Of a stretch of DNA of 64,000 nt, positions 30,583-30,904 are shown one piece after another. The stretch is taken from positions 36,360,329-36,424,328 of the forward strand of contig OZ024880.1 in assembly GCA_964017185.1 (NCBI GenBank), read 5' to 3'. Source of the DNA: Rugalucina vietnamica. Taxonomy: Eukaryota > Mollusca > Bivalvia > Lucinida > Lucinidae. The first letter of the stretch is position 1, and every line of letters starts with the position of its first letter. Below the pieces are notes generated by a model. It searched no databases. It saw only the letters and a list, made by a program, of their open reading frames with translations, and had not been told where the DNA came from. Both the position numbers and the translations under genes were made by a program.

Positions 30583-30904
30583 TCCCCGTATATAGTGCAG
30601 ATTATATTTTTCTTTTGATCCTTTGGGATCAGTGAATATATTTGGAGTATGTCAAAATTATTATATGTTAAGAATCATCTTCTTGACAGTATTTCGATTA
30701 TTTGGCCCCTTTGGGAATGTGAGTTTTTGATTTAGACTACATACAATGTAAATTCTTGAAATTGCAACTAAAATGTCTGGCTTTCGCTGCCAGTTTTGAA
30801 AAGGGTCACTGATGAAGGTTCATTACCCGAAATTGTACAATATGGCCCATCTTCTCGCTTTGAATGTTTTACTGCTTCCAAAGGATCTAACAATTATTTT
30901 TAAT
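30583..30904 (+). mobile_element. U3-specific 0.32-kb insert carrying a ribozyme motif
   Basis: All other units read directly through GTGGGTTCAAATGACG (or its S version), so about 320 bases were inserted here. Near its ends lie inverted GATCCTTTGG (30,617-30,626) and CCAAAGGATC (30,878-30,887). No target duplication is obvious. The hammerhead motif suggests a fragment of a ribozyme-bearing retroelement, such as a Penelope-like terminal repeat or a retrozyme. Confidence 0.65.
30803..30848 (+). ncRNA. Candidate type I hammerhead ribozyme
   Basis: Stem I 5' strand GGGUCA (30,803-30,808); core CUGAUGA (30,809-30,815); stem II GGU/ACC closed by UCAUU (30,817-30,827), with an A-C mismatch at its base; core GAA (30,829-30,831); stem III AUU/AAU around GUAC (30,832-30,841); then A at the cleavage position (30,842); stem I 3' strand UGGCCC (30,843-30,848), pairing with GGGUCA over six base pairs including one G-U. 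All invariant hammerhead positions are present in the order expected for type I, with the very short stem III typical of animal retroelement hammerheads. Activity is inferred, not shown. The single copy and mismatched stem II are cautions. Confidence 0.65.

What the first reader, a model, noticed from the sequence alone, without database searches (positions are those of the whole stretch)
30803..30848. Candidate hammerhead ribozyme in a U3-only insertion
The segment has CUGAUGA and GAA cores at the right spacing. A six-pair stem I (GGGUCA with UGGCCC), stem II GGU/ACC and a minimal stem III AUU/AAU with loop GUAC place the cleavage site after A30842. Short stem III, type I hammerheads are known in Penelope-like elements and animal retrozymes. 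Presence in an insertion absent from all five other units links it to a mobile element. It could generate self-cleaved or circular RNA.
Basis: partly seen in the sequence, partly recalled or inferred. Interest (0 to 1): 0.85.

Follow-up and report, generated by a model that had tools for sequence, protein, structure and literature searches.

The report
Truncated hammerhead retrozyme with Penelope signal
The sequence is a real hammerhead-ribozyme motif inside a shortened copy of a small mobile RNA element that occurs thousands of times in this genome, and that element shares a 41-letter signal with a larger retrotransposon that probably copies it.

Summary
In detail: 30803-30848 reads as a type I hammerhead (cleavage expected after A30842), with one correction: an A30816/C30828 mismatch at the base of stem II.

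It is not chance. The core pattern has 2,471 exact places in the genome (reversed control 0), in units of about 376 bp, often tandem. A diverged subfamily keeps stem I by compensatory change. A covariance model of this family finds a second hammerhead family in the window (45152-45195, minus) with changed but paired stems II and III. The insert is a copy of an animal-type non-LTR retrozyme. This copy is 0.83 unit with one ribozyme, so it probably cannot release a circle by itself.

New: 63 of 72 sampled arrays end at unit 372-376 while 5' ends scatter. That end lies 18 nt before a 41-nt stretch identical in a tandem Penelope-like element (PLE), whose copies mostly end 17 nt before it. This suggests PLE reverse transcriptase starting internally and running round a circular or concatemeric RNA. 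A review calls the partner not deducible from the repeats. Cleavage, circles and PLE action are untested.

The parts
30585..30903 (+). Inserted 5'-truncated retrozyme copy (0.83 of a 376-bp unit), absent from sister units
   Evidence: window 30592-30902 = unit 64-373 at 95.8% identity
30803..30848 (+). Type I hammerhead motif, family 1 (A10.1 subfamily)
   Evidence: one search also matches it, but one training row is identical to it
30803..30808 (+). Stem I 5' strand GGGTCA, pairs with 30843-30848
   Evidence: compensatory GGGCTA/TAGTCC in L070
30809..30815 (+). Catalytic core CTGATGA
30816..30828 (+). Stem II GGT/ACC with loop TCATT; A30816/C30828 mismatch at the base; G at this position in a minority subfamily
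30829..30831 (+). Catalytic core GAA
30832..30841 (+). Stem III ATT/AAT with loop GTAC; the ten bases are a perfect palindrome, so stem III can form between two copies
30842..30842 (+). Predicted cleavage after this A (unit position 313)
   Evidence: cleavage not tested
30902..30903 (+). 3' end of the insertion, at the family's common 3' end (window matches the unit to 373; common end 372-376)
45093..45441 (-). Family-2 retrozyme copy: shared motif (45389-45441, 96% to unit 13-65) and family-2 hammerhead
45152..45195 (-). Family-2 hammerhead: CTGAAGA core, stem II GGCT/AGCC, stem III ACC/GGT
   Evidence: (45.6 bits, not in the training set)
31345..31388 (-). Family-2 hammerhead remnant whose GAA core is lost (GTC)

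Best explanation
The insert is a probably dead, 5'-truncated copy of an animal-type non-LTR retrozyme. Complete units are about 376 bp and carry one minimal type I hammerhead. Multi-unit copies are transcribed, cut at each hammerhead and closed into small RNA circles (inferred from described retrozymes; not shown here). A Penelope-like element (PLE) of the same genome then copies the RNA: its reverse transcriptase recognises a 41-nt stretch shared with the PLE RNA, starts 17-18 nt upstream of it, and runs a variable distance, sometimes several laps (inferred from fixed 3' ends, scattered 5' ends and the shared stretch). Because the signal lies 3' of the start point, copying a linear monomer would lose it; a circle or concatemer regenerates it. 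The window copy stopped after 0.83 lap, lacks most of the signal and has one hammerhead, so at most it cuts a transcript running through it. Shown: family, ends, shared stretch, conserved stems. Inferred: cleavage, circularisation, PLE action.
For: Copies and tandem units of about 376 bp. 2,471 exact core places, control 0. Stem I compensation in L070; family-2 hammerhead found by a model not trained on it, with changed but paired stems II and III, 3,380 exact places, control 0. Fixed 3' end: 63 of 72 arrays at unit 372-376, 5' ends from 1 to 356; 5' phase not different from uniform (KS p 0.77 in 39 C1-list arrays, 0.21 in all 63). Units within an array differ by a median 1.5%, between arrays 6.2%. 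PLE tails: 41 of 52 end at L077 688-694. 41 of 41 identical nt, 17 nt after the PLE end and 18 nt after the retrozyme end, the only exact shared word of 12 nt or more with L077. Junction patterns genome-wide: retrozyme type 6,331 (control 39), PLE type 386 (control 2). Published precedent: a PLE starts reverse transcription inside its RNA, downstream of its hammerhead.
Against: No RNA or biochemical data. Rfam finds no hammerhead at 30803. The A/C mismatch should weaken the ribozyme; the predicted monomer minimum is another fold, and in the predicted circle of one unit the hammerhead is not formed. A dimer of one G10.1 variant also prefers another fold, by 0.8 kcal/mol. Lengths fit an exponential in the C1-list sample (p 0.41) but not pooled (p 0.043), and the choice favoured places with a single listed hit, so lengths are biased and I do not lean on them. 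The shared stretch folds clearly better than shuffles only in the PLE copy (z -3.0; retrozyme -1.4; family-2 copy +0.6). Multi-lap copies could come from linear multimers. Only one tandem PLE junction was read in full (L077); the 386 places are pattern matches. No target-site duplication, while the published description mentions duplications when present.
Confidence: 0.78

Rival explanations
1. The retrozyme is moved by a LINE or another reverse transcriptase that uses linear transcripts ending at the T-rich tract (for example a Pol III-type stop at ATTTTT), with read-through giving the longer arrays.
For: The common 3' end is T-rich..AATTATTTTTATTT; 5' truncation with a fixed 3' end is LINE-like; frames that look LINE-like by eye lie near some copies.
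Against: The 41-nt stretch lies 3' of the end point, yet PLE copies end at the same offset from it, which the T-tract does not explain; no target-site duplications.
Confidence: 0.15
2. The arrays are ordinary tandem satellite DNA amplified and moved at DNA level (slippage, Helitron-like rolling circle), and the hammerhead is incidental.
For: Tandem arrays with low divergence within arrays.
Against: Single and sub-unit copies dispersed on many contigs with one fixed end and scattered other ends; the window insertion is clean, with a 2-nt overlap; hammerhead pairing is kept across diverged families.
Confidence: 0.05
3. The family-1 A10.1 hammerhead is inactive or nearly so, and the copies spread as passive PLE templates without self-cleavage.
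For: A at 10.1 in 37 of 44 C1-list arrays typed at this site, facing C in 87 of 97 units; monomer minimum fold is not the hammerhead, nor is it in the predicted circle; in one PLE, hammerhead mutants did not affect insertion in vitro.
Against: An axolotl hammerhead with a U-U mismatch at the base of helix II still cleaves, 22% in an hour, and better as a dimer. The palindromic stem III allows a double hammerhead (-26.6 against a minimum of -29.2 kcal/mol for the window sequence; it is the minimum for one G10.1 core set into the window stems, and 0.8 above the minimum for another). The hammerhead window ranks 25 of 331 in conservation in loci found by similarity to the whole insert.
Confidence: 0.3

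Closest known systems
Animal non-LTR retrozymes (Cervera and de la Pena 2020, PMC7229834; mussel family of about 350-390 bp)
   Same: Type I hammerhead, short non-coding tandem repeats from monomers to multimers, low GC, thousands of copies, short stem III
   Different: Here: A10.1/C11.1 mismatch in the major subfamily; one common 3' end; a stretch shared with a PLE; no target-site duplication. RNA forms untested
Penelope-like elements with hammerheads (Anolis PAc, PMC11167929)
   Same: Internal start of reverse transcription downstream of a hammerhead; tandem copies; fixed genomic ends
   Different: The retrozyme unit encodes no such protein; the 2.6 kb of PLE read here (L077) has no CTGANGA on its + strand; the end lies 63 nt after the hammerhead cut here, about 85-92 nt in PAc (computed from the figures)
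Axolotl HHR_Amex2 (PMC7229834)
   Same: Mismatch at the base of helix II, short stem III with a tetraloop, proposed to act as a dimer
   Different: U-U there, A-C here; the repeat sequences were not compared
RAGATH-1 hammerhead (Rfam RF03152)
   Same: Core and stem order; the one hammerhead model listed for the family-2 copy
   Different: 12.3 bits against a gathering score of 56.3, so not assigned

Membership tests
Type I hammerhead ribozyme | CUGANGA and GAA cores in order with stems II and III closed and stem I open | tested here: met
Type I hammerhead ribozyme | Stems conserved by compensatory change | tested here: met
   Stem I: L070 GGGCTA/TAGTCC. Stems II and III: family 2. On family 1 alone (7 rows) the statistics are weak: 28 of 500 shuffles reach the covariation score
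Type I hammerhead ribozyme | Standard pair at 10.1-11.1 (recalled as usual) | tested here: not met
   A/C in the window copy and in 87 of 97 units; G/C in 9, A/T in 1
Type I hammerhead ribozyme | Score above the Rfam gathering threshold | tested here: not met
   No hammerhead hit, nor for RF00163 in the genome search (which warns it does not show absence); L066 and L070, which carry G/C units, are missed too at E 1, so the models seem insensitive to this type
Type I hammerhead ribozyme | Self-cleavage and loop I-loop II contacts | not testable with these tools
   No bench data
Animal non-LTR retrozyme | Non-coding unit of about 150-450 bp with one type I hammerhead | tested here: met
   376 bp; longest ATG frame 57 aa in the doubled unit, + strand only
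Animal non-LTR retrozyme | Monomer to multimer tandem copies, many loci | tested here: met
   0.3 to 3.7 units; the window copy itself is 0.83 unit
Animal non-LTR retrozyme | GC below 50% | tested here: met
   37.2% in the L005 unit, 33.2% in the window insert
Animal non-LTR retrozyme | Expressed as linear and circular RNA | not testable with these tools
   No RNA reads on hand
Penelope-like element | Encodes reverse transcriptase and GIY-YIG endonuclease | tested here: not met
   No ATG frame over 57 aa on the + strand of the doubled unit; with the tandem PLE L077 only the 41-nt stretch is shared

The most novel reading that the evidence does not exclude
Animal retrozymes are parasites of Penelope-like elements. 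A 41-nt RNA hairpin placed 17-18 nt 3' of the start point recruits the PLE reverse transcriptase, which begins inside the ribozyme-made circle and reverse-transcribes several laps during insertion, so circularity is what lets a 3'-lying start signal be inherited.
Probability: 0.6. Interest if true: 0.85.

Novelty: new member of a known kind. Interest (0 to 1): 0.7.

Why it matters
Which enzyme mobilises animal retrozymes has been open: a 2020 review says their repeats show no conserved motif from which the partner could be deduced (PMC7761336, passages), and PLEs were proposed on general grounds (PMC7229834). Here one genome offers such a motif, shared and position-matched. That makes the question directly testable with a purified PLE protein and circular against linear RNA. 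It also suggests why the ribozyme is kept: without circles or concatemers, internal initiation would discard its own signal.

Tried and rejected
Chance hammerhead: rejected by genome-wide copies with zero controls, although local statistics were uninformative. Private decay of stem II in the window copy: rejected, because A10.1 is the majority form. Target-site duplication: 2 of 63 arrays share a word of 7 or more, against a shuffled mean of 0.49 and a largest value of 3 in 200 runs. Hammerhead in the PLE: no CTGANGA on the + strand of the 2.6 kb of L077. RF00163 on the whole genome: 0 matches, with the tool's own warning that nothing rang in its controls. Host identification was not attempted. 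Pfam on two PLE pieces gave RVT_1 below its cut-off (E 0.05) and two other weak hits; I call the element Penelope-like from recalled RT motifs and a GIY-YIG-like stretch in L077. Craig et al. (PLEs with N-terminal GIY-YIG and selenocysteine) is recalled; the PMC records of Cervera 2014 and Lunse 2017 are not held, seen only as references. A structure evaluation with a wrongly cut 49-nt piece was replaced; the circle fold stands.

Full report
What is there. The 46 bases 30803-30848 read as GGGTCA / CTGATGA / A-GGT-TCATT-ACC-C / GAA / ATT-GTAC-AAT / A / TGGCCC. Stem II carries an A/C mismatch at its base. The bare core pattern is expected by chance in a window of this size, the isolated segment does not fold better than shuffles, and Rfam is silent, so the question had to be settled by relatives.

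Relatives. The window lies in a 1.09-Gb genome held as G000. The 319-bp insert has 79 listed matches in it, itself included; the tool says such counts are lower bounds. In one array (L005) successive units are 376 bp apart and identical. A pattern with 26 fixed letters of the hammerhead has 2,471 exact places, its reversed control 0. In 97 complete hammerhead units of my loci, stem I departs from its commonest pairs in 21 cells by another standard pair and in 11 cells by a non-standard one (counted). In L070 three units read GGGCTA/TAGTCC: one pair changed on both sides (C-G to U-A), two on one side. The base of stem II is A/C in 87 of 97 units, G/C in 9, A/T in 1. By array, the C1-list sample has 37 A, 6 G and 1 T; G arrays differ more among themselves (median 10.1%, 15 comparisons) than A arrays (6.7%, 666 comparisons), which suggests, without proof, that the mismatched form is the younger, expanding one.

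Sampling. L001-L030 are the best matches to the whole insert. L031-L070 are 40 of about 73 distinct places that I made out among the 100 listed (of 2,471) for the core pattern, all on contig C1. They were therefore chosen by the core itself, and the 20 were mostly places with a single listed hit, so core conservation and array length are biased in this sample. In the similarity-chosen loci the hammerhead window ranks 25 of 331 in conservation; in the C1-list loci, 6 of 331.

A second family. A covariance model built from seven family-1 hammerheads (one training row is identical to the window copy, so that match is by construction) finds two further motifs in the window. The first, 45152-45195 minus, scores 45.6 bits: GGGTCA CTGAAGA GGCT-TAAGT-AGCC GAA ACC-GA-GGT A TGGCCC. 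The second, 31345-31388 minus, scores 34.2 bits and has lost GAA. The next match scores 9.6 bits. Against family 1, stem II is GGCU/AGCC instead of GGGU/ACCC (the form with G10.1) and stem III ACC/GGU instead of AUU/AAU, while core, cleavage base and stem I stay. With a two-base loop only two stem III pairs can close within one strand. The family-2 core has 3,380 exact places, control 0. This is the strongest argument that the hammerhead architecture was under selection. On family 1 alone the pair statistics are weak.

Kind of element. Unit 376 bp, 37.2% GC, no ATG frame over 57 aa on the + strand, dispersed single to multi-unit copies: this matches animal non-LTR retrozymes (PMC7229834; parts 1-4 of 6 read). 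That paper reports a mussel family of about 350-390 bp and an axolotl hammerhead with a mismatch at the base of helix II that cleaves weakly alone and better as a dimer. Here stem III is a perfect ten-base palindrome. In a two-strand fold the double hammerhead is -26.6 kcal/mol for the window sequence against a minimum of -29.2; with the core seen at C1:10239176 set into the window stems it is the minimum (-34.0); with the core seen at C1:3084612 another fold is lower (-34.8 against -34.0). One unit folded as a circle reaches -86.7 kcal/mol against a shuffled mean of -76.9 (5 of 100 shuffles as low); the hammerhead is not formed in that fold.

How copies end. In 66 loci (70 minus four that overlap others) I found 72 arrays of 90 bp or more. 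63 end at unit position 372-376 (41 at 376, 16 at 375), while 5' ends lie anywhere from 1 to 356. The nine others are listed; in one (L009) a PLE piece interrupts the array. The 5' phase is compatible with uniform (KS p 0.77 in 39 C1-list arrays, 0.21 in all 63). Lengths fit an exponential in the 39 (p 0.41) but not pooled (p 0.043), and are biased as said. Units within an array differ by a median of 1.5% (50 comparisons), units of different arrays by 6.2% (5,912 comparisons). No target-site duplication stands out. The window insertion has a 2-nt overlap (TC) with the empty site.

The Penelope link. One locus (L043) held fragments that I recognise as Penelope-type reverse transcriptase. A search with one fragment listed 150 matches, many identical in protein, often in open frames of 640 codons, some with neighbours about 4.2 kb apart. 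I read the stretch between two tandem copies (L077): end of the RT frame, a 3' region, then at 709-749 41 bases identical to retrozyme unit 19-59, then a GIY-YIG-like frame and the next RT frame. It is the only exact shared word of 12 nt or more. PLE copies elsewhere stop just before it: of 52 PLE tails 41 end at L077 688-694, 7 at 695-700, 3 earlier (one at a locus edge), 1 continues through the motif (L001 repeats one window tail, and window copies may be duplicates of each other). So both elements end 17-18 nt before the same 41 nt. Genome-wide the retrozyme-type junction pattern has 6,331 places (control 39; it does not separate the two families), the PLE-type pattern 386 (control 2), and a 24-letter piece of the motif 4,190 (control 0). 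L072, a PLE copy, carries after its end point the motif followed by sequence like retrozyme unit 60-178, so part of the retrozyme may descend from a PLE. The motif can fold as a hairpin, but only the PLE copy folds clearly better than shuffles; in a nine-sequence alignment 2 of 13 pairs show double changes.

Mechanism. For one PLE (Anolis PAc) reverse transcription starts inside the RNA, downstream of the hammerhead, at a site unlike the target, needs RNA beyond the start, and explains the genomic tail signature (PMC11167929; parts 1-2 of 4 and passages read). The retrozyme ends fit this: 63 nt after the hammerhead cut, shared stretch beyond the start. An element that starts upstream of its own signal loses it unless the template is circular or repeated. 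A retrozyme circle, or a tandem PLE transcript, solves this. I infer, and have not shown, that the PLE protein acts on retrozyme circles. Linear multimers remain possible templates.

The window copy. It is 0.83 unit, carries one hammerhead and lacks most of the 41-nt stretch (it begins near unit 49, my reading). Of 39 C1-list arrays 16 are long enough to hold the stretch and 7 to hold two hammerheads (of all 63: 35 and 18). This copy is thus a probable dead end.

Literature. Searches with the terms in the held open-access library listed no title or abstract start that reports a retrozyme-PLE shared signal; a 2024 review (PMC11722881, passages) still names LINEs or PLEs as candidates and proposes that retrozymes arose by reduction of PLEs. 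I read no supplements, and most subscription papers are not held.

Noticed in passing
window 4268-4335, 12994-13061, 25521-25588 (-); L077 48-115: Rfam SECIS_1 hits above threshold; in L077 the hit lies at the end of the PLE reverse-transcriptase frame, and the four stops inside the PLE coding stretches examined are all TGA. The PLE may encode a selenoprotein; I recall, not from a call, that such PLEs have been described.
   Followed up: partly
window minus strand, e.g. 12414-13307, 24938-25736, 40421-41695, 50565-51863: The tandem units of the window contain many PLE 3' pieces that stop at or near the same PLE end point.
   Followed up: partly
window 31246-31467, 9182-9277, 57153-57221 (-): Sequence like the family-2 retrozyme region occurs at corresponding places in sister units, so that insertion may be older than the unit duplication, whereas the family-1 insert is younger.
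   Followed up: partly
L048 2721-3097: A retrozyme copy with an inverted 5' part next to the forward part, like a 5' inversion during reverse transcription.
   Followed up: no
genome, e.g. C1:83952986, 83957209, 83961432: Tandem PLE copies about 4.2 kb apart with identical protein stretches and open frames of about 640 codons, which suggests recent activity.
   Followed up: no
window 15278-16143, 19703-20261, 35672-36364, 62512-63372: Arrays of a 147-bp tandem repeat, in both orientations along the window.
   Followed up: no
unit position 287 (window 30816): The majority subfamily carries a weakened stem II and is less diverged than the canonical G form; a weaker ribozyme might favour stable circles.
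   Followed up: partly
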